This document shows, one piece after another, positions 20,686-48,745 of a stretch of 64,000 nt of DNA. The stretch is from Atopobiaceae bacterium. Lineage in GTDB: Bacteria > Actinomycetota > Coriobacteriia > Coriobacteriales > Atopobiaceae. Under the pieces are notes generated by a model, which saw only the letters and a list, made by a program, of their open reading frames with translations, searched no databases and was not told the origin of the DNA. Every line of letters starts with the position of its first letter. Position 1 is the first letter of the stretch. Made by a program: the position numbers and the translations under genes. The DNA lies in assembly GCA_022483015.1 (NCBI GenBank), contig JAKVOB010000001.1, positions 2,132,902 through 2,196,901 of the forward strand, written 5' to 3'.

Positions 20686-22035
20686 CTATTGCACTAAGTA
20701 GGCGAGCACATTGACGACAGAGCATGATGCCAGCGCACCCAAGGCTACAAGCACCGTAGATTTCTGATTTCGGGTCAACTCGTCCGAAGAGCGTCCGACC
20801 GCATAGAGTATGGCCATGATTATGGCGAAGTCCATGAAGATGAACGTTCTGCTGCTGGATGCAAACAGTGATGGAGAGAATCCCAAGCAGACTCTCGATC
20901 CCAAGCCTCCACCGAGTATCACGAGGTTGATGAATGAGTCCCAGGTCCATCCATAGATAATCAGTACACTGACGGCAAGTGCGACCACGACCAGTACTTG
21001 CAGACCCAGCGAGCCCATGCTCCTCTCCCCGATCTGTAGATTCTGACACATAAACGTTGAAACGGCGAGATAAGGCCAACTCACAGTCGCCGCGGACGTC
21101 ATCCAACTGGAAATGACCTCGGCACCAAGGGGAACAAGCGAGATAAGCCGCGCAACGGGCGATTGGGTCTTTCGAAAGACAAGTATGACTACCATCACGC
21201 AAAGAATGAGAAACAAGATATTGCCCTCATAGACATATCGGTTCATCGTACTGGCGAATCCCAGGTACAGTTTATGAAGTGTAGAGAACGAAGAAAACTC
21301 AGGAAGCCAATAGGCTGTGTTTGCGGCCGTACGAGCTGCGTTTCCGGGACAGGTCAGCGCCACCACGCACTCCAACATTGCTATCCCTGTCTCACAGGCG
21401 ACGAGTGCCGATGCCCTATGTCTGCGGACCGTCTCGAGGAATACGATTAGTCCACCCACAGCCATTATCGCCCCAAGCTGCTCCTCGTTCGATGCGAACA
21501 AGGTCGCGATGATACAGAGAGAGGATTTCCAGAGTGAGGTCTTATGGCCCAGCAGGGCATCCCTGTAAGACACAAAGACGTAAAGCCCACACGAGAGCGT
21601 CCACGTATAAGGAATAGTCGTAGGTATCCAGCCTGCAGTATCCATGTCGACATAGGAGTAACAAAGGATAAGGATTACAATGACCCATGAGATATAGCTC
21701 TTGTGACTTGCGTTGAACAGACTCGAGAGGGAGGTATAGATGAACACAGCAACCATTATGTCGAGCATGGCCCAAAGCAGCGGGACATGCACCAATGTCA
21801 CGGTAAAAAGTTCGATAATGCTGCGCGACGTCCAAGTCGAGAAACGCATAGCGGTAAATTCTATGATGTTCTGATTGTCCAAGAACCCAAGGAAGTCACC
21901 AGAATCACCCGTCGTAGTATTCATCATGAGGTGAAGTACCACCGACACTCCGACCAGTAAACACAGGGGTGCCGACACATGGGACCTGCTTACTAGGGAA
22001 GACTTTGCTATATGGTTTGGCAACTGATAGCACAC
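20686..22035 (-). CDS. Low-GC multi-spanning membrane protein (DUF6056-like)
   Basis: 449 residues with about ten hydrophobic helices. Examples are LCLLVGVSVVLHLMMN, SYISWVIVILILCYSY, NILFLILCVMVVILVF and GLQVLVVVALAVSVLII. The loop TCPGNAARTAANTAYW resembles the PGNxxR motif of DUF6056 proteins, often found near glycan-assembly genes; no function is established. Base composition is far lower in GC than all neighbours, and codon use is different, pointing to transfer. The GTG at 22035 follows GAAAG. The gene and its low-GC flanks lie between copies of the palindromic repeat. It may be a GT-C-like glycosyltransferase. Confidence 0.78.
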   Translation of the reverse strand: MCYQLPNHIAKSSLVSRSHVSAPLCLLVGVSVVLHLMMNTTTGDSGDFLGFLDNQNIIEFTAMRFSTWTSRSIIELFTVTLVHVPLLWAMLDIMVAVFIYTSLSSLFNASHKSYISWVIVILILCYSYVDMDTAGWIPTTIPYTWTLSCGLYVFVSYRDALLGHKTSLWKSSLCIIATLFASNEEQLGAIMAVGGLIVFLETVRRHRASALVACETGIAMLECVVALTCPGNAARTAANTAYWLPEFSSFSTLHKLYLGFASTMNRYVYEGNILFLILCVMVVILVFRKTQSPVARLISLVPLGAEVISSWMTSAATVSWPYLAVSTFMCQNLQIGERSMGSLGLQVLVVVALAVSVLIIYGWTWDSFINLVILGGGLGSRVCLGFSPSLFASSSRTFIFMDFAIIMAILYAVGRSSDELTRNQKSTVLVALGALASCSVVNVLAYLVQ

Positions 22036-33707: not shown

Positions 33708-37100
<3,393 letters not shown>

Positions 37101-37292
37101 CTTGGCTCCGGGTCCGTATGGGTGCGCCGGCATGGGAATGCCAGCAGGTTGCTTTTAGTATGGCTTCAACAATCTACCCGAGAAGGGCCCGCTTAGCCCT
37201 GCCCACACGGCATACATGGACTTGAAAGTCGAGACGGACGAGAGGGGCGGGGCAGGGTCAGGGCGGGGTCGGGGCGAGGCGGGACCGCGCCG
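37101..37292. other. Upstream region of the ABC fusion gene
   Basis: About 190 bp of GC-rich sequence. On the minus strand CATACT near 37158 could be the -10 of the ABC gene, with no convincing -35. Otherwise nothing is recognised before the repeat array. Confidence 0.3.
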
Positions 37293-37683
37293 GGGTCACC
37301 CGGGGCAGGCAATGCGGGACGGCACGCACGTTGCCTGGCGACAGTGACCCGCGGCGGCGACCCGGGGGCCCACCAGGGTCACCCGGGGCAGGCAACGCGG
37401 GGCGGCACGCACGTTGCCTGGCGACAGTGACCCGCGGCGGCGACCCGGGGGCCCGCTCAGGGTCACCCGGGGCAGGCAACGCGGGGCGGCACGCACGTTG
37501 CCTGGCGACAGTGACCCGCGACGGCGACCCGGGGCCCGCTCAGGGTCACCCGGGGCAGGCAACGCGGGGCGGCACGCACGTTGCCTGGCGACAGTGACCC
37601 GCGGCGGCGACCCGGGGGCCCACCAGGGTCACCCGGGGCAGGCAACGCGGGCCGGCACGCACGTTGCCTGGCGATAGTGACCC
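37293..37683. repeat. Array of five 58-bp palindromic repeats, 83-84 bp period
   Basis: Copies are at 37293-37350, 37376-37433, 37460-37517, 37543-37600 and 37626-37683, separated by near-identical 25-26-bp GC-rich linkers. Each copy starts GGGTCAC, carries CAGGCAAC (CAGGCAAT in copy 1) and GTTGCCTG as inner arms, and ends GTGACCC, so each folds into a two-step hairpin. It lies between two divergently transcribed genes. The linkers are not unique, so this is not a CRISPR. The core length and period equal those of the array near 20.5 kb. Confidence 0.9.
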
Positions 37684-37738
37684 GCGACGGCCGTCCGACC
37701 GCCCGCACCCGCGCCCCAGACCCCACCTGCACCCCTGC

Positions 37739-37751: not shown

Positions 37752-38357
37752 ATGAACACGTCGAGACACACATCGGGCAGGCATGCCAGCCACGCCGCGG
37801 GTCAGGTGCCCGTCACCGCGACCGACCCCGCCACGCCGCAGGCGCCCAACCGCCCAGAGCCCTCGCACCCGCTGCTCCGCGACATCGGGGCGCTCGTCAT
37901 CAAGGTCGCCGTCATCGCCGCCATGTTCGTGGCCCTGTTCACCTTCGTCTTCGGGTTCTTCCGCTACGACGACGTCTCGATGAAGCCGTCCGTCAAGGCA
38001 GGCGACGCCGTGCTCTACTACCGCCTCGACCGCGACTACATCGCCGAGGACGTCTGCGTCTTCACCTACCAGGACAAGCTCACCTGCGGACGCGTGGTGG
38101 CCGTGGCCGGCGACACCGTGGACATCCGCGACAACCAACTGCTGGTCAACGGCTCCTATCAGCAGGAGACCGACATCTACTCGGACACGACGCAGTTCGA
38201 GGGCGGCCCCGAGATGCCGCTCACCGTACCCGAGGGCTCCGTCTTCGTCCTGGGTGACAACCGCTCCACGGCCACCGACAGCCGCATCATCGGCTGCATC
38301 TCGACCGACGACACCCAGGGCACCGTGATCGCGGTCATCCGTCGACGGGGAATCTGA
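37752..38357 (+). CDS. Signal peptidase I-like protein lacking the catalytic lysine (SipA-like pilus factor)
   Basis: 201 residues. One membrane helix lies at about 50-75 (VIKVAVIAAMFVALFTFVFG). The S26 fold boxes follow: VSMKPSVKAGD with the serine present, then LTCGRVVAVAGDTVDIRDNQ, and VFVLGDNRSTATDSRIIG. In active type I enzymes the third box reads YxKRVxGxPGD. Here Gly stands where the general-base Lys should be, and there is no His as in the ER type. Streptococcus pyogenes SipA, needed for FctA pilus assembly, has the same Lys-to-Gly change. The gene leads the pilus locus, so a pilus-assembly or chaperone role is likely rather than general secretion. Start ATG 37752 is set by the leaderless promoter. 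Confidence 0.85.
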   Translation: MNTSRHTSGRHASHAAGQVPVTATDPATPQAPNRPEPSHPLLRDIGALVIKVAVIAAMFVALFTFVFGFFRYDDVSMKPSVKAGDAVLYYRLDRDYIAEDVCVFTYQDKLTCGRVVAVAGDTVDIRDNQLLVNGSYQQETDIYSDTTQFEGGPEMPLTVPEGSVFVLGDNRSTATDSRIIGCISTDDTQGTVIAVIRRRGI

Positions 38358-38534
38358 CCCCGGACGCATCCACTGAGAGGCACCCGTCAGCGCCTCAGAC
38401 TGTTTTGGATACCGCACACCGATGAGCTCACGATAAAACCCCGGAATTGTGGCCTTATAGATACCAAAGGGTAGAATCTTGTTGCTAGGAAGCCGTCATT
38501 TCACGAGGGAGCGACCGAAGGCCACCGATATACC
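38358..38534 (+). promoter_or_regulatory. Terminator-promoter interval before the adhesin gene
   Basis: CTGAGAGGC (near 38372) and GCGCCTCAG (near 38391) form an imperfect stem followed by ACTGTTTTGG, a plausible weak terminator. Downstream, TTGTGG near 38446 and TAGAAT near 38472 (19-bp spacing) could be a promoter; the adhesin ATG lies about 60 nt further on. The sequence here is less GC-rich than the genes. GAAGG lies 13 nt before the ATG. Confidence 0.35.
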
Positions 38535-41500
38535 ATGAGAAGGTCATCCATAAAGAACCGTCTCATCCTCACGACCAAGCGATTCGGCTTGGGCGTGATG
38601 GCCCTTCTCGTGCTGATCTCCTGCACGCTTGGGTACCCCACAAGGAGCTACGCCGCGGCCACCGGGTCGGGCACGATCCATCTGGTAGACGGTACCAACG
38701 GCGGAGCCGAGGTCGCCACTGACGCGGACCTCGCATCGGCGAACGAGGTGCCGGCCTTACAGGCCGGGTGGGGATGGTCGTCAGCCGCCGGTACGGTCGG
38801 TGGCATGGCGCCGACCAACGCATGCGCCGTCGATGCGGTCACGCTCGACCCGGGCTCACTCAGCAAGTGGTTCTACACAGCCGGTACCACCACGACCACG
38901 ACCCCGGCAAAGCAGTCCCTCACGTTCTCGGGAGCATCGTCGGTCTCGTCGGGCACAGGCACCACCACCTTCACCAACATGACCATCAACCTCACCGGCG
39001 GCAGCCACCTGGACTGCTCGAGCGGCGGCAGCCTCGTCTTCAAGAACTGCACCATCACCATCGACGGCACCAGCTACATCACGAGCGCCGGCAGCCTCTC
39101 CCTCGACGGGTGCTCCGTCACCGGGTCCAAGGGGTCGGCGACCGACATCCAGCTCACGGGTGGCACCTGCGCCCTCACGGGCACGGACGCCTTCACCGGC
39201 TGCAGCATCGACACGGCCAAGGCCGCCTCCATCACCACCTCCGGCACTACGACGCTCACCGACTGCGCGCTCACCGGCACCACGGACCGGACCACCCCGC
39301 TCTTCTCGGTCACCGGCGGCACCACCGAGGTGGCCGGAACCACCACCATCACCGGCATCACCAACACCAATGGCGGGTCGAAGCCCGGTGGCGTCTTCAA
39401 CGTGAGCGCCGGCACGCTCAAGCTGACCGGCGGGACCATCTCAGGCTGCAACATCACCGCCCCCGGAAGCATGTCAGGCGGTGGGGCCGTCGCCTATGCG
39501 TCAGGTGGCACCATCAGCCTCACCGGCACCACCGTGAGCACCTGTGGGAGCGGTACGGCAGGGCAGTGGACCTGTGGCTCCTTCGTCCTCGGCGGGGGGT
39601 CCATGAGCATGTCCGGCGGCACCATCACTGGCTGCAAGGGCTCTCACGGCGGAGCGATCAGCATCGTCTCCGGCTCCTCCGCCTTCAGCATGTCCGGTGG
39701 CACCATCACGGGCTGCACCGCCGCCTATGACGGCGGTGCAGTGTTCGGGTACAACGGCCCCACCATAACCATGAGCGGAGGCAGTATCACCGGATGCTCG
39801 GCCGAGCGCACGGGCAGTGCCATCAGCACGCGAACCGGTGCCACGGTCAAGATCACCGGAGGATCGATCACCGGTAACACGACATACACGGGCGGCGACG
39901 CAAACGACAACGGCAAGGCCGCGATCGCTGGCTACTCCAGCGGTAACACTGGCACATACACTATCTCCGGCAACACGACCATATCGGGTAACAAGAACGC
40001 CTCGGGCGCAGCCGCGGACGTGATGGCATACTCCGCGACGTCCCTGAAGATCGACAACCTCGGGGTCTCTGCCCGGGTAGGCGTCACCTCCTCCACCGCC
40101 TCGCTGCTCACAAGCGGAGCCCAGTTCGCCGTCGCATCGTCTGGTACGGCCAGCTCGACCACCAACCTCGGCATGCTCTTCAACGACTCGGACGCCACCC
40201 TGGTAGGGACCGCAGGAACCGAGAGCATCGTAAAGTGGGACGCCCAGGCCGTCTGCAAGATCGTCGACAACGACACCACATACACATATTCGACGCTCCA
40301 AGCCGCCATCGACGCGGTCGGCAACGGCACGATCCCCACCACCGCCACCATCCAGATGCTGGTCGAGAACTACCCCATGACCACCACCCATATCATCGAC
40401 AGCACCAAGGACATCACCATCACCACCGCCGCCGAGGGCGCCACGGACGGTTACCCCTATCGAGGCACCTCGGGCACCAAGGCCACGCTCACGCGCTCCT
40501 CTACGGGCAGCCTGACGGGTTCCCTCTTCGCGATAGGCGGCTCCACCGCCGGAGCGCTCACCCTCACCGGCATCACCGTGAGTGGGGACAGTGTCGCCGG
40601 CGTGACAGCCTTGGGAGGCCTTGCCAACCTAAGTAGCGGCGGAATCCTGAACTGTGCCTCTGGTTCGACGTTCCGCGACTCCACGGTCATCGGCAGTGGT
40701 CATACCGGGGCAATCTACAATTATGGGGGAACGGTCAACCTCTCTGACGGCTCGACGATATCCAACTGCGGCGCAGCATCACCTACCGGCGCCGGAGCCA
40801 TACTCACCGCGGCATCAGGCACCCTCAACATGGGGGGCGGCACCATCACCGACTGCGGGAGCTCGACCTCGGCCGCCGTAATGCTCATGTCCCTGAATGG
40901 CACACCTTCCACCATGACCATGAGCGGCGGCACCATCACCGGCACACCGGCCAACCCCTACGGCGCGGTGTATGCGAACACGTACCGAGGCACCGGCACG
41001 GCCACCTTGAACCTGAGCGGCGGCACCATCACCGGCAACGGCAGTGCGGGCGTGGTGCTTGGGACGAACGGCAAGCTCGCCATGACCGGTGGCAGCATCA
41101 CCACCAACACAGGCGTCGGCGTGGACATCCAGTCGACTTCCTCGGCCACCATGAGCGCCGGCTCCGTCACCGGCAACAAGGCCGGCGGCGTGACCATAGA
41201 GAGCGGCGGCACCATGGCCGTCTCGGGCGCGCCTCAGGTCACGGGCAACACCGTCACGTCCTCGGGCACGACCACCAACCAGAACGTCTACCTGGCAGCC
41301 GCGGCAAGCGGCAAGCAGCTCACCGTGACCGCCGACCTCAGCGGTGCCGACCTCGGTATCTCCGTTCAGGCCGCCGACCATGCGGACGGCACGGACTTCG
41401 CCTTCGGCTCGTCCCACACCGTCACCGCCAATGAAGCCTCGCAGTTCTCGGATGACACCGGCACCCTGGCGGTCTCCCTGGACTCCACCACCAACGCCGT

Positions 41501-44500
41501 CCAGTTCGACGCGAGCAACACCTATGTCTGCAAGATCGTGGACACCTCAGGCAAAGCCACCGGCTACACGACGCTCCAAGGCGCCATAGATGCCGTGGGC
41601 ACGGGAGGCACCGCCACCATCCAGATGCTGGTGGAGAGCTACGACATATCCGCCATCCACACCATCGCCAACTCGAGGAACGTCACCATCACCACCGCCA
41701 AGACCGTGGCAGAGGGCTGCACCGACGGCTTCCCCTACCGTGGCACGGCAGGCACCACGGCCACGCTCAGGTCGACCAAGGCGAATCCCATGTTCTCCAT
41801 GAATGACTCGAACTCGACCTTGGGCTTCTCCGACATCATGGTGGACGGGAACGACATCGGTCGTATCGTCACCGTCACGGCCGGCACCCTCGACCTCGGG
41901 GATGGCACCACCTTCACCAGAGGTCGCGCCACCCAGGGATCCGCCATCTGCGCCTCGGGAGCCTCCACCAGCGTCACGATGAGCGGCAATGCCACCATCA
42001 CCGGTTGCACCAGCACCGACGCAGGAGCGATCGACCTCTTCGGCGGGTCGACCTTCACCATGAAGGACTCGAGCAGCATCCAGAACAACACGGGCAGCCT
42101 GCACGCCTCAGCCATGTTCATCCGCAACAGCACCCTCTGCAACGTCTACCTCCAGGACGATGCCACCATCAAGGGCAACACGTGCACGAACGCCAGCGCG
42201 AACTGCGCGGCCATCAACACCCATCCGGGAAGCGCGGCCATCCACCTCTCGGGCAATGCCTCGATAACCGGGAACAGCACCGCCAGTAGTGCCTCCTCTG
42301 CCAGTGCCATCTGGCTCAGGGAGAACTGCAGCCTCGACATCACCGGCAACGCATCGATCACAGGCAACACCGCCACGGCCTCGGCCACCACGGGCGGCGT
42401 GTACGCCTCGAGCAGCGCCACCATCAGCGTCCAGGGCAACGCGGTGGTCGATGACAACACCAACACGTCAGTCGAGCGCAACCTCTACACCGCCAACAAC
42501 ACCGCCATCAAGGTCACGGGAAACCTCGGCACCGACGCCAAGGTCGGCGTCTACTGCACGGGCAAGACGGCGGCAGGAGACCAGTTCGGGACCGCCACCA
42601 GCTCGGGTACGGAGGTCGCGGCGTCCACGTACGAGAACATCGACCACTTCGTGAACGACGCGAACCCCAACCTCTACGGCATGACGAAGGATGCCACGAG
42701 CTCCGCCGTCGTGTGGGGCAAGGGCACCTGCCAGATCATCCGCAACGGCGCGTACGTGGACTCCTACGAGACGCTCGCCGACGCCTGCGCAGCCGCGCAG
42801 ACCGGCGACACCATCCAGATCTACCGCAGCCACGAGCTCACGACCGCGGCCACGTTCACCGCGGGGGTCACCGGCGTCACCATCACCACCGCCCCCACCA
42901 CGCAGACGGTCGCAAGTGCCTATGCCTATGTGCCTGCCAAGGGCGACGACGCGACCACGGCCACCGTGCGACGCGCCTCCAGCTACACGGACGGGTCCCT
43001 CCTCACCATCAGCACGACCGGGGACTCGGTGGACAACGTGATCTTCGACAGCCAAGGGATATCGAGCTCTGCCAGCACCATCGCCGTGAACGAGGATGCC
43101 ACGCTCACCGACGTGACCGTGACCAACTGCGTGAGCACAGGGACGTCCGCCGCCGTGGAGGTCGCCAGCGGAAAGAGCGTGGGCCTCGCCGGCAAGGTCA
43201 GCATCAGCAAGAACGTCGACGAGAACAAGCTCGCCGCCAACGTCAGGCTCGACAGCGAGAACAGCCCCACGTCGACGGGCCTCATCAAGGTCCTCGGTGA
43301 CCTCGGCACGGGCTCCTCCGTCGGGGTCACCGTCATCGACGCCGACCATGTCTCCTACGTCCCCTGGGCGCAGGCATACACGAACTCGACCGCCACGGAG
43401 ACGTCCATCACGGTGGCGGCCGACTCGACCAAGTACTTCTTCGACGACCTGGCCCCCAAGCTCAACATCGGCGCCAACAACACGGGCAGCCACACCACCT
43501 TGAACACCTATCTCTACTTCGAGCCGCCCATGGCCTTCTCGTTCAAGAAGGTCTCGAACAACCTCGAGCAGGACCCCATCGCAGGCGTGCAGTTCCACGT
43601 CTATATGTGGAAGGGAGCCAACTCCGCGTATAACAAGACCGACTACACCAGCCGCGACACCTACCTGACCGACGCGGCGCTCGCCGGTGACACCGCGGAC
43701 TGGGAGCCCCTCACCACAGCGAACGGCAACACCAAGGTCTTCACGTCAGATGCGAGCGGCGTGGTCGACTTCGGCGACCCCACCGACGGCGGAGGCCTGC
43801 CGGACGGCATCTTCCGCGTGGTCGAGGTCTCCACGCCAGACAACCACACCAACATCACCAGCCTAGGCGGCTGGCACTTCGTGGCCGACTCGACCCAGGC
43901 CGACCCCTACAAGGTCACACTCCCAGGCACCTATTCCAACACCACGACCACCGACACCGACCCATGGGCCAACCCGCTCAAGGCGTCCACCGCGACCACC
44001 GGCGTCCTGGCCGCAAGCTACGACTCGGCTGCGGGCACCTGGGTGGTCGAGAACCAGTACGCGGACACAGTGGGCCAGCTCAAGGTCTTCGCACATGTGA
44101 CCGGCGGCTACGCGGACATGAGCAAGGCGTTCTCGTTCACCGGCAAGCTCACCGACTCCACTTCTACCACCAGGACCTTCACGGGAACCATCCGCAACGC
44201 GAGCGGCGTGTCGACTGGCACCACCATCACCTTCACCTCGGGCGTCGAGAAGACCTTCACGCTCTCGGACGGGCAGTATCTGCAGCTCGACGGTCTCGCC
44301 GCATCGACCACCAGCTTCGAGATGGTCGAGGACGCCGCGACCAACTACACGCTCTCCTTCCCCACCACGGACGGCTGGAACTCCTTCCAGGACACCACTG
44401 CGACCCTCACCACCAACGCCGTCACTCGCACGGCCTCCGGCACCATCGGTACCGGCGAGACGCGCGTGGACTTCCAGAACACCTCTGCGGACGTGCCGGT

Positions 44501-44618
44501 GACAGGCGTCCGCGGGCTCGGAAATCCCCTGCTCCTGGCAGGCATCGTCGCAGGATGCGTCCTAGGCCTCGTGCTCGTGGCCTGGACGCGTAGGCGACGT
44601 GCCAAGAGGGGTTGGTGA
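38535..44618 (+). CDS. Large sortase-anchored surface adhesin (probable pilus tip/accessory protein)
   Basis: 2027 residues. A signal peptide ends near TRSYAA (about 40). Residues 45-1600 are Thr/Ser/Gly-rich, with parallel beta-helix-type repeats (TMSGGTITGC, GGSLVFKNCTITIDG). Three modules starting CKIVDN near 573, CKIVDT near 998 and CQIIRN near 1398 each continue with Y(S/T/E)TLxxA and a DGYPYRGT-like segment. From about 1665 (FSFKKVSNNLEQDPIAGVQF) a SpaA/Cna-B-like prealbumin domain follows, and another at about 1845. VPVTG at 1987 replaces LPXTG, before a hydrophobic helix and an RRRRAKRG tail. Lies between the SipA-like and pilin genes, as Cpa-type tip adhesins do. Confidence 0.9.
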   Translation: MRRSSIKNRLILTTKRFGLGVMALLVLISCTLGYPTRSYAAATGSGTIHLVDGTNGGAEVATDADLASANEVPALQAGWGWSSAAGTVGGMAPTNACAVDAVTLDPGSLSKWFYTAGTTTTTTPAKQSLTFSGASSVSSGTGTTTFTNMTINLTGGSHLDCSSGGSLVFKNCTITIDGTSYITSAGSLSLDGCSVTGSKGSATDIQLTGGTCALTGTDAFTGCSIDTAKAASITTSGTTTLTDCALTGTTDRTTPLFSVTGGTTEVAGTTTITGITNTNGGSKPGGVFNVSAGTLKLTGGTISGCNITAPGSMSGGGAVAYASGGTISLTGTTVSTCGSGTAGQWTCGSFVLGGGSMSMSGGTITGCKGSHGGAISIVSGSSAFSMSGGTITGCTAAYDGGAVFGYNGPTITMSGGSITGCSAERTGSAISTRTGATVKITGGSITGNTTYTGGDANDNGKAAIAGYSSGNTGTYTISGNTTISGNKNASGAAADVMAYSATSLKIDNLGVSARVGVTSSTASLLTSGAQFAVASSGTASSTTNLGMLFNDSDATLVGTAGTESIVKWDAQAVCKIVDNDTTYTYSTLQAAIDAVGNGTIPTTATIQMLVENYPMTTTHIIDSTKDITITTAAEGATDGYPYRGTSGTKATLTRSSTGSLTGSLFAIGGSTAGALTLTGITVSGDSVAGVTALGGLANLSSGGILNCASGSTFRDSTVIGSGHTGAIYNYGGTVNLSDGSTISNCGAASPTGAGAILTAASGTLNMGGGTITDCGSSTSAAVMLMSLNGTPSTMTMSGGTITGTPANPYGAVYANTYRGTGTATLNLSGGTITGNGSAGVVLGTNGKLAMTGGSITTNTGVGVDIQSTSSATMSAGSVTGNKAGGVTIESGGTMAVSGAPQVTGNTVTSSGTTTNQNVYLAAAASGKQLTVTADLSGADLGISVQAADHADGTDFAFGSSHTVTANEASQFSDDTGTLAVSLDSTTNAVQFDASNTYVCKIVDTSGKATGYTTLQGAIDAVGTGGTATIQMLVESYDISAIHTIANSRNVTITTAKTVAEGCTDGFPYRGTAGTTATLRSTKANPMFSMNDSNSTLGFSDIMVDGNDIGRIVTVTAGTLDLGDGTTFTRGRATQGSAICASGASTSVTMSGNATITGCTSTDAGAIDLFGGSTFTMKDSSSIQNNTGSLHASAMFIRNSTLCNVYLQDDATIKGNTCTNASANCAAINTHPGSAAIHLSGNASITGNSTASSASSASAIWLRENCSLDITGNASITGNTATASATTGGVYASSSATISVQGNAVVDDNTNTSVERNLYTANNTAIKVTGNLGTDAKVGVYCTGKTAAGDQFGTATSSGTEVAASTYENIDHFVNDANPNLYGMTKDATSSAVVWGKGTCQIIRNGAYVDSYETLADACAAAQTGDTIQIYRSHELTTAATFTAGVTGVTITTAPTTQTVASAYAYVPAKGDDATTATVRRASSYTDGSLLTISTTGDSVDNVIFDSQGISSSASTIAVNEDATLTDVTVTNCVSTGTSAAVEVASGKSVGLAGKVSISKNVDENKLAANVRLDSENSPTSTGLIKVLGDLGTGSSVGVTVIDADHVSYVPWAQAYTNSTATETSITVAADSTKYFFDDLAPKLNIGANNTGSHTTLNTYLYFEPPMAFSFKKVSNNLEQDPIAGVQFHVYMWKGANSAYNKTDYTSRDTYLTDAALAGDTADWEPLTTANGNTKVFTSDASGVVDFGDPTDGGGLPDGIFRVVEVSTPDNHTNITSLGGWHFVADSTQADPYKVTLPGTYSNTTTTDTDPWANPLKASTATTGVLAASYDSAAGTWVVENQYADTVGQLKVFAHVTGGYADMSKAFSFTGKLTDSTSTTRTFTGTIRNASGVSTGTTITFTSGVEKTFTLSDGQYLQLDGLAASTTSFEMVEDAATNYTLSFPTTDGWNSFQDTTATLTTNAVTRTASGTIGTGETRVDFQNTSADVPVTGVRGLGNPLLLAGIVAGCVLGLVLVAWTRRRRAKRGW

Positions 44619-44689
44619 TGCCCTTGGATCCCCTCTTCGGACAGCATCGCCGCACACGCCCCGTACGACGACGCTCACATCAAATAACC

Positions 44690-44719
44690 TTGCCTTCTGA
44701 TGCGAGGAAGGGGCATACT
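44690..44719 (+). promoter_or_regulatory. Candidate promoter of the pilin gene
   Basis: TTGCCT at 44690-44695 and CATACT at 44714-44719 are 18 bp apart, leaving an 80-nt leader before ATG 44799. It suggests the abundant pilin is transcribed separately from the adhesin. The surrounding sequence is AT-richer than the genes. Confidence 0.45.
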
Positions 44720-44798
44720 TCAATAAGCTATAAGGTATGGGAGTGCTATCTGAGAAGCACGAGCGTACACGCTCACAGAGTCGGACAGAGGAGCTCAT

Positions 44799-46076
44799 AT
44801 GGATATCAAACGTAAGAGGGGACTCAAGGGCCTGATGGCCGTGACCCTCGCAGCCGTCACGGCACTGACCATCGGCACGATGGCACCAGCCACGGCGAAG
44901 GCTGGGACAACAGGAAACACCTCGACAGAGGTCGCCATCTCCAAGGACTACAAGCTGCCTTCCAACCTCACGTCCGGTAGCGCCTTTGGCGCGACCTTCA
45001 CGTATCAGTTCACGTCCACGAGCGTCAACGGTGTCGCCCCCGACACGAACAACACGATGCCCGACATCAGCGCCGTGACTATTACCCCGACCACGACGCC
45101 GGCCTTCTCCACCACTGCGAACGGCATCACGGAGTACGGCAAGAACGCGGCAGATTTCCTCCCGGTCGTTGGTACGGAAGCCACGAACTTCACTCACGCC
45201 GGTGAGTACGTCTATACCGTCTCCGAGAAAAATGGTGGCACGACGAGCACCGACGGTGTCGTGTACTCGGACGCCCAGTATCAGATTCATGTCTATGTCA
45301 TCAACGATGACACCGTCGAAGGCACGCCTAAGCTCAAGATCAGCGATGTGTCTGTCTACAAGACGGCCACGGATGACGGCACGGCTCAAAGCGGCACAGA
45401 CGTGGCGAACAAGGTCGACCCAGTCCCTGGGTCAAGCACGACCCTCGGCGGCATGGTGTTCAACAACACGTACAAGAAGGACACCAACCTCACCATCTCT
45501 AAGGCAGTCGCTGGCGCTGAGGGCGACAAGACGCACGACTTCACCTATACCGGCTTGACCCTCACCGTGCCGACGGGTGTCACTGCCCCCACAACCGTCT
45601 ACCTGAAGAAGTCGGACGGCACCTATCTGACCGGAGCCGTCTCGGGCCAGAAGATTACGTTTGCTGACTTCACCCTCTCAGATGGTGAGAGCGTGACCTT
45701 CACCGATAACAAGACCACCGTCAAGGATGTCCTCCCGGTCGGTACCACTTACACCTTCACAGAAAGTGCCACCTCCGGCTATACGCCGGTGGGCGTCGTG
45801 AGCACCGACGTCAACGGAACGGCCTCCACCCAGACGACCACGGTCGGAGCGGTTGGCACCACGTTGCCCATCGATGCCACGGCCGCGAGCGCCAATGGCA
45901 AGAACACCTTGGGCATCACGGCCGCCAACAACTCGGTAGCGGTCACCAACACCTATAAGACCGTCTCCCCCACGGGCATCATCATCCAGAACCTGCCCTT
46001 CATCATCATGGGCATCGTCGCCGTGGGTGGCATCGCGCTGCTCGCCCTCTCGCGTCGTCGTAAGAACAACGCCTAG
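44799..46076 (+). CDS. Two-domain isopeptide pilin (FctA/Spy0128-like major pilin)
   Basis: 425 residues. A signal peptide ends near ATAKAG (35). Two domains match the streptococcal pilin isopeptide type. Domain 1 has Lys in VAISKDYKLP (K49), Glu in YTVSEKNGG, and Asn in VFNNTYKK (N222/223). Domain 2 has Lys in NLTISKAVAG (K235), Glu in YTFTESATSG, and Asn in VTNTYKT (N384). Each trio would form an intramolecular Lys-Asn bond. The sorting signal is VSPTG near 389, followed by a hydrophobic helix and SRRRKNN. AGAGGAG precedes the ATG. GC is lower than around it. The pattern fits a pilus shaft protein polymerised by the adjacent sortase. Confidence 0.92.
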   Translation: MDIKRKRGLKGLMAVTLAAVTALTIGTMAPATAKAGTTGNTSTEVAISKDYKLPSNLTSGSAFGATFTYQFTSTSVNGVAPDTNNTMPDISAVTITPTTTPAFSTTANGITEYGKNAADFLPVVGTEATNFTHAGEYVYTVSEKNGGTTSTDGVVYSDAQYQIHVYVINDDTVEGTPKLKISDVSVYKTATDDGTAQSGTDVANKVDPVPGSSTTLGGMVFNNTYKKDTNLTISKAVAGAEGDKTHDFTYTGLTLTVPTGVTAPTTVYLKKSDGTYLTGAVSGQKITFADFTLSDGESVTFTDNKTTVKDVLPVGTTYTFTESATSGYTPVGVVSTDVNGTASTQTTTVGAVGTTLPIDATAASANGKNTLGITAANNSVAVTNTYKTVSPTGIIIQNLPFIIMGIVAVGGIALLALSRRRKNNA

Positions 46077-46105
46077 CACGTGAGTACCACTGCTCCAGAC
46101 TCTGA

Positions 46106-46147
46106 GAACCGCCCGGACCTGACGAACGAAGTCGGTCCGGGCGGTTC
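46106..46147 (+). terminator. Strong hairpin terminator after the pilin gene
   Basis: GAACCGCCCGGACC (46106-46119) and GGTCCGGGCGGTTC (46134-46147) form a perfect 14-bp stem with a 14-nt loop, followed by GTTATA. It would limit read-through from the pilin to the sortase, giving more pilin than enzyme. Confidence 0.75.
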
Positions 46148-46149
46148 GT

Positions 46150-46155
46150 TATACT
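46150..46155 (+). promoter_or_regulatory. -10 box immediately upstream of the sortase gene
   Basis: TATACT at 46150-46155, just past the terminator hairpin, ends 8 bp before ATG 46164. There is no Shine-Dalgarno, so the sortase mRNA is probably leaderless, as for the SipA-like gene. Confidence 0.55.
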
Positions 46156-46163
46156 CAGGTGCC

Positions 46164-47186
46164 ATGAGACCAGATTCCACATCATCCCAGACCCCACCAG
46201 CCCGCACGCCACTCTCACCAGGGAGGCGCGTGGTTCGCTTCCTCGACAACGCCGTGGACGCCCTGGTGATGGTCGTGCTCCTGGCGCTGCTCGCGTTGGG
46301 TACCTATGCGATCTGGGACACCAACACGGTCTACGCGCAGGCGGACTCCGCCAACTACCGCGTCTTCAAGCCCACCTACCCACGCTCGCAGCCCTCCTTC
46401 GAGGACCTCCAGGGCATGAACCCCGACGTCTTCGGCTGGCTCGACGTCTATGGCACCAACATCGACTATCCCCTGGTGCAAGGCACGGACGACGACTACT
46501 ACCTCACCCACGACGCGACCGGCGCCTACTCGCTCTCGGGGTCGCTGTTCCTCGACAGCCGCTGCGACACGTCCTTCTCGGGGTTCGATAACCTCATCTA
46601 CGGCCACCACATGGATGCCAACGCCATGTTCGGCCAGGTCACGGACTTCCTCGACCCCACGTTCTTCAATGAGCACCAGTACGGCAACATCTACTACGAC
46701 GGCGCCAACCACGGCATCCAGTTCATCGCCGTGATGGAGGCCGATGCCTACACCTGCGACCTCTACGACGTCCCCATCGAGGGCGAGGCCTGCACGAGTG
46801 CCTTGGCCGAGATCGAGTCATCGGCCACGAACAAGCGCGACGTCGAGGTCTCCGCGAGTGACCACCTGGTGCTCCTCTCGACCTGCGCGGACTCCAGCAC
46901 CAACGGCCGCACCATCCTCATCGGCAAGATCTATGACCAGACCTTCGACAACCCCTTCCCCGACGAGGTAGCCACCGGCAGCGGCCTCGGCAACACGACC
47001 GAGGGGCTCCTCTCGTGGCTGCGTAGCCTGCCGTGCTGGGTATGGGTTATCATCGTCCTGCTGATACTCCTGCTCATCATCCTCATCGTCTGGCTCTGCC
47101 TGAGGCGCCGTCGCCGCAGGCGGCGTGAGCTTGCGCGCGCCAGCCGTGAGGAAGATGGGCCATCCGTCGGAGACCCTGATCGATGA
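46164..47186 (+). CDS. Class B-type sortase with an added C-terminal membrane helix
   Basis: About 340 residues. A membrane helix lies at about 30-50 (DALVMVVLLALLALGTYAIW). The class B core has DVFGWLDVYGTNIDYPLVQG, SLFLDSRCDTSFSGFDNLIYGHHMD (His 148/149), LVLLSTCADSS (Cys 241) and NGRTILIGKI (Arg). A second helix at about 285-310 (WVWVIIVLLILLLIILIVW) and a poly-Arg tail give the topology typical of pilus-forming class C enzymes. In S. pyogenes M1 the pilin polymerase is also a class B-type enzyme. It should join pilin subunits and adhesin by their sorting signals. A GTG at 46080 also opens the frame but would start before the terminator. Confidence 0.9.
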   Translation: MRPDSTSSQTPPARTPLSPGRRVVRFLDNAVDALVMVVLLALLALGTYAIWDTNTVYAQADSANYRVFKPTYPRSQPSFEDLQGMNPDVFGWLDVYGTNIDYPLVQGTDDDYYLTHDATGAYSLSGSLFLDSRCDTSFSGFDNLIYGHHMDANAMFGQVTDFLDPTFFNEHQYGNIYYDGANHGIQFIAVMEADAYTCDLYDVPIEGEACTSALAEIESSATNKRDVEVSASDHLVLLSTCADSSTNGRTILIGKIYDQTFDNPFPDEVATGSGLGNTTEGLLSWLRSLPCWVWVIIVLLILLLIILIVWLCLRRRRRRRRELARASREEDGPSVGDPDR

Positions 47187-48745
47187 GCGCTGCCACGATC
47201 GATGATGCACGTGCCGCCCTGCTGGGGCACTTTGGCTACCACGACTTCCGCCCTGGCCAGTCAGAGGTGGTCTCGGCCATCCTCGCCGGCCGGGATGCCC
47301 TGGCCGTGATGCCCACCGGCGCCGGCAAGTCGGCATGCTACCAGGTGCCCGCCGCGGTGCTGGGCGGCCTCACGCTCGTGATCTCTCCCCTCATCGCCCT
47401 CATGGGCGACCAGGTGCGGGCCCTGAAGGAGGCCGGCATCCGTGGTAGCTACCTCAACTCCACCTTGAACGCGCGCCAGCAGTCCATCGTGATGCAGCGG
47501 GCGCTCGATGGCTGGTACGACATCATGTACGTCGCCCCCGAGCGCCTGGGCGACTACCGCTTCCGGCAGTTCATCTCGCAGGCAAAGGTGCCGCTGCTGG
47601 CCATCGACGAGGCCCACTGCGTGAGCCAGTGGGGGCAGGACTTCCGCCCCGCCTACCGTGACATCGCCGACTTCGTGGGGTCACTCCCCGCCCGGCCCGT
47701 CGTGGCGGCCCTCACGGCCACCGCGACCGAGCGCGTGCGCGACGACATCACCGACCTCCTCGGCCTCTCTGACCCCCTGGTGGAGGTCTCGGGCTTCGAC
47801 CGGCCCAACCTCTTCCTGGGCACGGCCGAGCTCTCCCGCCGCGAGAAGGACGCCTGGCTCGCCGGCTACGTGCGCCACCATGATGACGCCTCGGGGATCG
47901 TCTACATCGAGAGCCGAAAGGGGGTCGAGCGCGTCGCGTCGGACCTGGCCGACCGTGGCGTGGACGTGGTGCGCTACCACGCCGGCCTCAGCATCGAGGA
48001 GCGCTCCTCGGCCCGCATGCGCTTCGTGGCCGACGACGTCCGCGTGATGGTGGCGACCACGGCCTTCGGCATGGGCATCGACAAGCCCAACGTGCGCTGG
48101 GTCGTGAACATGGGCCTGCCCCTCTCACTCGAGGAGTACTACCAGCAGGCAGGACGTGCCGGACGCGACGGCGGGCCCGCCGAGTGCTGGCTGCTCTGGA
48201 ACCGCGGCGACCTGCGCACCTGCCGCTTCCTCATAGACCACGCCGAGCCCGCCGAGGGGGTCACCGCAGACGAGGCCCGTGCCGCGCTGCGCAACCGTGG
48301 GCACCTGCTCGACGGGATGCTCGCCTATGCCGAGGACGAGGACTGCCTGCGCCGCCACATCCTCGCCTACTTCGGCGAGGACCTCGACGACGTTCCCGAG
48401 ACCTGTGACAACTGCAGCTGCTGCACCGACACCGAGACGGGCGTGCTCGAGCGCACGGACGTGCGCCGCCGACCCACCGCCCGCAAGGTCGACCGCACCC
48501 GCGTGGCCGCTGCCGCCGCCGAGACGCCCGAGGCGTCCGAGACCTTCGACCGCCTGAGAGCCCTGCGCAAGCGCCTGGCATCGGAGGCGGGCGTGCCTCC
48601 CTACGTGGTCTTCTCGGATGCGACGTTGCACGCCATGGCAGCAGCGGCGCCCACCACGGCGGACGAGCTGCTGCAGGTCTCTGGCGTGGGCCCCATCAAG
48701 CTCGAGCGCTATGGGGACGCCTTCCTGGCCGAGCTGGCACGCTAG
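47183..48745 (+). CDS. recQ: RecQ-family ATP-dependent DNA helicase
   Basis: 520 residues. A 3'-5' DNA helicase for recombination and repair. Walker A is MPTGAGKSACYQ, DEAH box is AIDEAHCVSQWGQDFRP, motif III is ALTATATERV, and ATTAFGMGIDKPNVRWVVNM and QQAGRAGRDG are motifs V and VI. Four zinc-binding cysteines lie near residues 392-416 (DCLRRH to CDNCSC). A short HRDC-like domain with VSGVGPIKLERYGD ends the protein; the winged-helix part appears reduced compared with E. coli RecQ (about 610). ATG overlaps the sortase stop (ATGA). Its stop shares CTAG with the mazF stop on the other strand. Confidence 0.95.
   Translation: MSAATIDDARAALLGHFGYHDFRPGQSEVVSAILAGRDALAVMPTGAGKSACYQVPAAVLGGLTLVISPLIALMGDQVRALKEAGIRGSYLNSTLNARQQSIVMQRALDGWYDIMYVAPERLGDYRFRQFISQAKVPLLAIDEAHCVSQWGQDFRPAYRDIADFVGSLPARPVVAALTATATERVRDDITDLLGLSDPLVEVSGFDRPNLFLGTAELSRREKDAWLAGYVRHHDDASGIVYIESRKGVERVASDLADRGVDVVRYHAGLSIEERSSARMRFVADDVRVMVATTAFGMGIDKPNVRWVVNMGLPLSLEEYYQQAGRAGRDGGPAECWLLWNRGDLRTCRFLIDHAEPAEGVTADEARAALRNRGHLLDGMLAYAEDEDCLRRHILAYFGEDLDDVPETCDNCSCCTDTETGVLERTDVRRRPTARKVDRTRVAAAAAETPEASETFDRLRALRKRLASEAGVPPYVVFSDATLHAMAAAAPTTADELLQVSGVGPIKLERYGDAFLAELAR

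What the first reader, a model, noticed from the sequence alone, without database searches (positions are those of the whole stretch)
37752..47186. FCT-like pilus locus in an actinobacterium
Four neighbouring genes encode a signal-peptidase-like protein, a 2 kb-residue anchored adhesin, a two-domain isopeptide pilin and a class B-type sortase. This is the set that builds the S. pyogenes M1 pilus (Cpa, SipA, FctA/Spy0128, SrtC), with the SipA-like gene moved to the front. Established knowledge: in that system the polymerising sortase is class B-like and SipA is essential. Seen here: the same families and the same active-site loss. The lower GC of the pilin suggests transfer.
Basis: partly seen in the sequence, partly recalled or inferred. 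Interest (0 to 1): 0.72.

Follow-up and report, generated by a model that had tools for sequence, protein, structure and literature searches.

The report
Streptococcus-style pilus locus in gut actinobacterium
A gut-type actinobacterium carries the genes for a covalently built surface hair (pilus) made by the same unusual machinery that streptococci use, and its genome also holds several spare tip proteins and a spare base protein elsewhere, which suggests that one hair shaft may be fitted with interchangeable tips.

Summary
PDB searches give GAS SipA, pneumococcal PitB and the 4y4q/Spy0129 sortases. Trees put the sortase inside the pilus-SrtB clade, away from housekeeping SrtB. Both K/E/N triads, a candidate cross-linking lysine (K205) and the sorting threonine are >=90% conserved in 65 pilins.

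Corrections: SipA has lost only the catalytic lysine (Gly113); Ser76 remains. Pilin GC is weak evidence of transfer. The tip is a beta-helix, not Cpa. The closest shaft is PI-2 PitB rather than Spy0128. The locus type is widespread: about 21 of 200 Coriobacteriia sampled, plus Clostridia, Bifidobacterium, Propionibacteriaceae and streptococci.

New here: the adhesin sits between sipA and pilin, unlike the other 71 loci holding all three genes. The genome has one pilin but four unlinked proteins sharing its tip-type tail (three are adhesin paralogues) and an unlinked base-pilin homologue. One shaft with several tips is plausible but untested. Verdict: known machinery in a new lineage, with variant architecture.

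The parts
37752..38357 (+). sipA-like gene, 201 aa, one N-terminal TM (res. 48-67), signal peptidase fold without catalytic lysine
   Evidence: TIGR02227 2.6e-31; best PDB 4n31 GAS SipA 7.9e-22
37977..37979 (+). SipA Ser76, position of the signal peptidase nucleophile (retained)
   Evidence: alignment
38088..38090 (+). SipA Gly113, position of the signal peptidase general-base lysine (lost)
   Evidence: alignment
38535..44618 (+). anchored adhesin, 2027 aa: signal peptide, right-handed beta-helix, DUF7601 (res. 1847-1983), VPVTG-TM-Arg tail; proposed pilus tip
   Evidence: Pfam, ORF, hydropathy
44493..44507 (+). adhesin sorting signal VPVTG (res. 1987-1991)
   Evidence: sequence
44799..46076 (+). 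two-domain shaft pilin, 425 aa, N-terminal FctA-like and C-terminal DUF7601 domain
   Evidence: PDB sequence and fold searches, model pLDDT 84
44943..45467 (+). N-domain isopeptide triad K49 / E143 / N223 (codons within this span)
   Evidence: conservation and alignment to solved bond of 7W7I
45411..45413 (+). pilin K205, candidate intersubunit lysine
   Evidence: K in 73 of 77 pilins; function inferred
45501..45950 (+). C-domain isopeptide triad K235 / E322 / N384 (codons within this span)
   Evidence: conservation
45963..45977 (+). pilin sorting signal VSPTG (res. 389-393)
   Evidence: sequence; T392 in 71 of 77 pilins
46080..47186 (+). class B pilus sortase, 368 aa, N- and C-terminal TM segments; HH176-177, C269, R277
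   Evidence: TIGR03064 1.3e-49; PDB 4y4q 6.9e-58, 3psq 5e-36; pilus clade
46884..46886 (+). sortase catalytic Cys269 (LSTC)
   Evidence: sequence

Best explanation
The locus encodes a covalent, sortase-polymerised pilus of the SipA/class-B-sortase type in an Atopobiaceae (Coriobacteriia) bacterium. Pilin and adhesin precursors are exported and held in the membrane by their C-terminal TM and Arg/Lys tails (inferred from sequence). The class B sortase cleaves after Thr in VSPTG (pilin) or VPVTG (adhesin) and joins that Thr to a lysine, most likely K205, of the next pilin (inferred from conservation and from Spy0128 K161-T311). The SipA-like protein does not cleave peptides, because it lacks the general-base lysine; it acts as a scaffold or chaperone for polymerisation (inferred from GAS). 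The adhesin caps the tip. Each shaft subunit is locked by two intramolecular Lys-Asn bonds. Wall anchoring probably uses an unlinked base pilin (G000:C1 about 860.7 kb, LVKTGD signal) and another sortase, such as the class B-like enzyme at 542 kb.
For: Family and PDB matches for the SipA-like protein, pilin and sortase, domain matches for the adhesin. Pilin model pLDDT 84; Foldseek best PitB 7.5e-24, then the Spy0128 family, with C. diphtheriae SpaA far weaker. Sortase clade containing Spy0129 and SrtG1 but excluding S. aureus, B. anthracis and Listeria SrtB and the genome's own other class B-like sortase, 99/94 support. Among 77 pilins both triads are complete in 63 and K205 is present in 73; K49, E143, K205, N223, K235, E322, N384 and T392 are all conserved in >=90% of 65 pilins. 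Lys lost in 83 of 86 SipA-like proteins, Ser kept in 31; of the 84 left after two extra weak-scoring genes are set aside, none keeps both. 69 of 72 loci read sipA-pilin-sortase. In GAS, SipA is required for polymerisation and has no peptidase activity (PMC4049620; PMC7900414).
Against: No expression, polymer or microscopy data. Whole-length TM-scores to Spy0128 are modest (about 0.3 on the query). K205 as nucleophile rests on conservation and loop position only. No base pilin in the operon.
Confidence: 0.87

Rival explanations
1. A class B sortase that merely anchors the two surface proteins singly to the cell wall, with no polymer; the SipA homologue is a vestigial signal peptidase.
For: Class B sortases of S. 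aureus, B. anthracis and Listeria anchor single proteins (established knowledge). No polymer has been shown. SipA keeps its serine.
Against: Sortase sits in the pilus clade with Spy0129 and SrtG1. Pilin has the shaft architecture and a conserved loop lysine. SipA-pilin-sortase linkage is kept in 69 of 72 loci. The lysine is lost in 83 of 86 SipA-like proteins, which is not what random decay of one gene gives.
Confidence: 0.08
2. The SipA-like protein is still an enzyme that uses Ser76 with another base, and processes the adhesin or pilin.
For: Ser76 is in the signal peptidase motif SMKP; 31 of 86 relatives keep it.
Against: The lysine is Gly; Ser is not kept across the family; in GAS the equivalents are not needed and no cleavage is seen (PMC4049620).
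Confidence: 0.05
3. The locus was recently transferred from Firmicutes, as the low GC of the pilin suggests.
For: Pilin GC3s 0.80, sortase 0.85 and adhesin 0.875 are below most window genes; nearest sortases by path are Clostridia and Coriobacteriia are scattered in the tree.
Against: sipA GC3s is 0.93; relatives' pilins are also often the lowest-GC gene of their locus; the nearest clade includes the same-genus genome G200; branch lengths are long (0.6-0.8). Old transfer is possible, recent transfer is not shown.
Confidence: 0.2
4. The unlinked adhesin paralogues are ordinary wall-anchored proteins, not alternative pilus tips.
For: No biochemical link; DUF7601 occurs in many genomes without SipA-type pili; the genome has other sortases.
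Against: They share head, stalk and tip-type sorting signal with the linked adhesin and match the pilin profile through the signal and TM; other anchored proteins seen here have PxTGD-type signals; CafA is a precedent.
Confidence: 0.5

Closest known systems
Pneumococcal/oral streptococcal pilus islet 2 (PitA-SipA-PitB-SrtG1-SrtG2)
   Same: Best structural match of the shaft (PitB, Foldseek 7.5e-24) and best sequence match of the sortase (4y4q, 6.9e-58; in the tree 4y4q is nearly identical to the S. oralis sortase beside SipA and a PitB-type pilin). SipA homologue in the locus.
   Different: Tip is a beta-helix protein, not the VWA protein PitA. sipA lies before the adhesin. One pilus sortase instead of two.
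GAS FCT-2 (M1) pilus: Cpa-SipA-Spy0128-Spy0129-FctB
   Same: Same functional roles for four genes; Spy0129 falls in the same sortase clade; Lys to Gly in SipA; two-domain isopeptide shaft; VPTG-like signals for shaft and tip.
   Different: No Cpa-type adhesin, no FctB in the operon, Ser kept in SipA, different gene order, different neighbours.
Clostridium perfringens VR-10B necrotic enteritis pilus (PMC8088525)
   Same: Class B sortase, signal peptidase homologue and pilins in one operon, with fibres seen by microscopy outside streptococci.
   Different: Three pilins (CnaA, FimA, FimB) in the operon. Not compared by sequence here.
Actinomyces oris type 2 fimbriae with CafA (PMC5478893)
   Same: Precedent for an unlinked tip protein that uses another shaft's sortase, as proposed here for the unlinked paralogues.
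   Different: Class C sortase SrtC2, no SipA known to me, different shaft family.

Membership tests
SipA/class-B-sortase pilus (GAS FCT-2/3/4, PI-2, VR-10B) | Pilus-clade class B sortase with His-Cys-Arg site | tested here: met
   TIGR03064 over cut-off; HH176-177, C269, R277; inside pilus clade with Spy0129 and SrtG1
SipA/class-B-sortase pilus (GAS FCT-2/3/4, PI-2, VR-10B) | Adjacent signal peptidase homologue without an intact Ser-Lys dyad | tested here: met
   Lys position is Gly113; Ser76 kept; best PDB match GAS SipA
SipA/class-B-sortase pilus (GAS FCT-2/3/4, PI-2, VR-10B) | Two-domain shaft pilin with two Lys-Glu-Asn triads and a VPTG-like signal | tested here: met
   K49/E143 align with K52/E139 of 7W7I; both triads conserved; VSPTG. 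Geometry itself not measured
SipA/class-B-sortase pilus (GAS FCT-2/3/4, PI-2, VR-10B) | Lysine nucleophile for intersubunit linkage, equivalent to Spy0128 K161 | tested here: inconclusive
   K205 conserved in 73 of 77 in the loop before N223; equivalence to K161 not shown residue by residue
SipA/class-B-sortase pilus (GAS FCT-2/3/4, PI-2, VR-10B) | Base pilin in the operon (FctB type; absent from some streptococcal loci) | tested here: not met
   recQ follows the sortase; a base-pilin homologue lies unlinked at G000:C1:860685-861215
SipA/class-B-sortase pilus (GAS FCT-2/3/4, PI-2, VR-10B) | Covalent polymerisation dependent on SipA and sortase | not testable with these tools
   needs immunoblots and mutants
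S. pyogenes FCT locus proper | Cpa-type tip adhesin | tested here: not met
   Adhesin matches only Beta_helix and DUF7601 in Pfam
S. pyogenes FCT locus proper | FCT neighbourhood (rofA/nra regulators, fibronectin-binding proteins) | tested here: not met
   Flanked by an ABC transporter gene (33708-37133) and recQ (47183-48745)
Class C sortase pilus (SpaA type) | Class C sortase and SpaA-type shaft | tested here: not met
   No class C model at E<=0.1; SpaA structures are only weak Foldseek matches

The most novel reading that the evidence does not exclude
One pilus shaft and sortase serve a genome-scattered set of interchangeable tip adhesins. The genome has a single full-length pilin but five other proteins whose C-termini match the pilin profile through the sorting signal and membrane segment: the window adhesin, three unlinked paralogues of it, and one protein with a different head. 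The base pilin is also unlinked. The odd gene order would then be one tip paralogue that has moved into a sipA-pilin-sortase operon.
Probability: 0.4. Interest if true: 0.65.

Novelty: new variant of a known kind. Interest (0 to 1): 0.5.

Why it matters
What SipA does is an open question in streptococcal pilus biology. The family assembled here shows what evolution keeps (the fold, loss of the general-base lysine, co-location with pilin and sortase) and what it lets drift (the serine), which argues for a binding or scaffold role rather than residual catalysis. It extends SipA/SrtB pili to many gut Actinobacteria and Clostridia, for which no description in Coriobacteriia was found in the open-access papers searched, with swappable tip heads on a common DUF7601 stalk. 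The multi-tip idea is directly testable in one strain.

Tried and rejected
DUF7601 as a marker of pilus systems: rejected, 83 of 200 Coriobacteriia have it, most without a SipA-type hit; only the sorting-signal type separates them, in a small sample. Pilin GC as proof of transfer: rejected. The 83-bp repeat upstream of sipA as a pilus-specific control element: rejected, it is a dispersed genomic family. Promoter or terminator signals inside the locus: no sigma-70-like site found and no terminator on the coding strand; the stem after sipA (38360-38415) is not unusual. Near-identical DNA on plasmids: no match. A 19-member SipA alignment was too diverse as a scan query, so the sortase was used. 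The first pilin model was poor (pLDDT 64); a 65-sequence alignment fixed it.
Full report
OBSERVATION. The four genes are present on the + strand as described: 37752-38357, 38535-44618, 44799-46076, 46080-47186. They are flanked by an ABC transporter gene on the other strand and by recQ, whose ATG overlaps the sortase stop codon. The window is bases 2132902-2196901 of a 2.28 Mb single-contig genome. Its family code in the genome search also holds an uncultured Olsenella (G115, same locus as L133), and its genus code holds an Atopobiaceae bin (G200, same locus as L097), so the host is taken to be an Atopobiaceae, class Coriobacteriia (inference from shared loci).

WHAT EACH PROTEIN IS. Gene 1 is a signal peptidase homologue whose best solved relatives are GAS SipA and LepA (7.9e-22, 2.1e-20). 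Gene 2 has a signal peptide, a right-handed beta-helix, a DUF7601 domain near the C-terminus and a VPVTG-TM-Arg tail. Gene 3 is the shaft: the single-sequence PDB search finds PitB, and the profile of 17 relatives finds Spy0128 at 3e-38. With 65 aligned pilins the model has pLDDT 84, and Foldseek ranks PitB first (7.5e-24), then Spy0128 and its relatives, with Corynebacterium SpaA near 1e-4. Gene 4 is a class B sortase over the curated cut-off with no class C model hit, closest to 4y4q (6.9e-58) and to Spy0129/3psq (5e-36).

ACTIVE SITES. In SipA the lysine position is Gly113 and the serine is kept as S76. GAS SipA has Asp48 and Gly85 (PMC4049620). Across 86 SipA-like proteins the lysine is absent in 83 (53 Arg, 22 Gly, 6 Ala, 1 Leu, 1 Ser), while serine is kept in 31. 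The two with both residues are extra, weaker-scoring genes in L065 and L100. The counts are not corrected for relatedness. This fits a family that keeps the fold but not catalysis.

PILIN CHEMISTRY. K49 and E143 align with Lys52 and Glu139 of the solved S. oralis PitB bond listed in PMC12617251. Of 77 pilins, 63 keep both K/E/N triads, 73 keep K205 in the loop before N223, and 71 keep the sorting Thr. In the separate 65-pilin alignment those residues are all conserved in at least 90% of sequences. In Spy0128, K161 in the omega loop is joined to T311 of the next subunit (PMC7900414), so K205 is the candidate nucleophile here.

SORTASE PHYLOGENY. A quick 125-row tree and a careful 67-row tree agree. 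Pilus sortases, including Spy0129 and SrtG1, form a clade (97*, and 99/94) that excludes S. aureus, B. anthracis and Listeria SrtB and the host's own class B-like sortase at 542 kb. The window sortase groups with its same-genus relative and one Eubacteriales bin (96* in the quick tree, 92/85 in the careful one). Coriobacterial sequences are scattered among Clostridia. Some past transfer is likely, but not specifically recent.

DISTRIBUTION AND ORDER. About 21 of 200 sampled Coriobacteriia genomes have a SipA-type hit clearly above ordinary signal peptidases (my reading of the score gap). A scan of named genomes with one peptide pattern gave 80 loci in Clostridia, Erysipelotrichia, streptococci, Bifidobacterium panos, Propionibacteriaceae and Coriobacteriia; many are metagenome bins. 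Of 72 loci with sipA, pilin and sortase in one run, 69 read sipA-pilin-sortase, 49 have a large adhesin just upstream of sipA, and only the window has the adhesin between sipA and pilin (a few near-duplicate loci are counted). L160, a distant Coriobacteriia genome, has a similar sipA-first order with a diverged sortase. Tip heads differ between loci (beta-helix, VWA with GBS104-like Ig, List_Bact repeats) while the DUF7601 stalk module recurs in tips and shafts.

UNLINKED PARTS. In the host genome the pilin profile finds exactly one full-length pilin (315 bits) and five other proteins that match through the sorting signal and TM: the window adhesin and genes in L176, L177, L178 and L179. The first three unlinked ones are paralogues of the window adhesin (E 1.7e-194, 1.5e-96 and 4e-223; up to 60% identity over 436 residues) with VPVTA, VPVTG and VVATG signals; L179 has another head and VVPTG. 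Other anchored proteins seen in this genome carry PxTGD-type signals. A homologue of the same-genus base pilin lies unlinked at 860.7 kb with an LVKTGD signal. In the same-genus genome G200 the pilus operon has no adhesin, and an adhesin orthologue (48% identity) sits about 290 kb away. None of the roughly 17 DUF7601 proteins with readable tails from genomes without a SipA-type hit has a tip-type signal. CafA of Actinomyces oris is a known unlinked tip that uses another shaft's sortase (PMC5478893). Hence the proposal that one shaft can carry several tips, at probability 0.4.

SHOWN AND INFERRED. Shown: gene content, family relations, residue conservation, gene order, paralogues and their signals. 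Inferred from streptococci: polymerisation, SipA dependence, tip position, base anchoring. Not shown: expression, fibres, what the tip binds.

VERDICT. By machinery this belongs to the SipA/class-B-sortase pilus kind. It is not an FCT locus in the strict sense, because Cpa, FctB and the FCT neighbourhood are missing. Its architecture (beta-helix tip, adhesin inside the operon after sipA, unlinked base and tip paralogues) is a variant. No description in Coriobacteriia was found in the open-access papers searched; subscription papers were not searchable.

Noticed in passing
window 37293-37691: 83-bp tandem repeat, 4.8 copies, directly upstream of sipA; 45 matches to it are dispersed around the genome.
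   Followed up: partly
G000:C1 about 2091228-2096293 (L055:5229-10294): A 1418-aa anchored SpaA/DUF11/pilin-domain protein followed by a divergent class B-like sortase with FGHN and LSTC motifs: a second sortase-substrate pair.
   Followed up: partly
window 20686-21930 (-): Unusually low-GC gene (0.51, GC3s 0.58), 414 aa, no Pfam match, with short sequences resembling the dispersed repeat on both sides; looks like an island.
   Followed up: partly
L065 and L100 (Lacrimispora celerecrescens; Clostridiales bin): A second signal peptidase homologue with Ser and Lys both present lies upstream of the adhesin in the pilus cluster.
   Followed up: no
L050 and L052 pilins: The N-domain isopeptide Lys and Glu are lost together while Asn stays: apparent loss of one bond.
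   Followed up: no
window adhesin DUF7601 domain, residues 1847-1983: The triad lysine position is Ala in the window adhesin but Lys in its paralogues L176 and L178, so this last stalk domain may lack its bond.
   Followed up: partly
G000:C1 about 461004-470393 (L175:3005-12394, -): A roughly 3130-aa open frame with at least five DUF7601 matches.
   Followed up: no
L120 (Erysipelotrichaceae bin): Two tandem pilus cassettes with two pilus sortases.
   Followed up: no
window 47183-47186: recQ start codon overlaps the sortase stop codon (ATGA), so recQ may be translationally coupled to the pilus operon.
   Followed up: no
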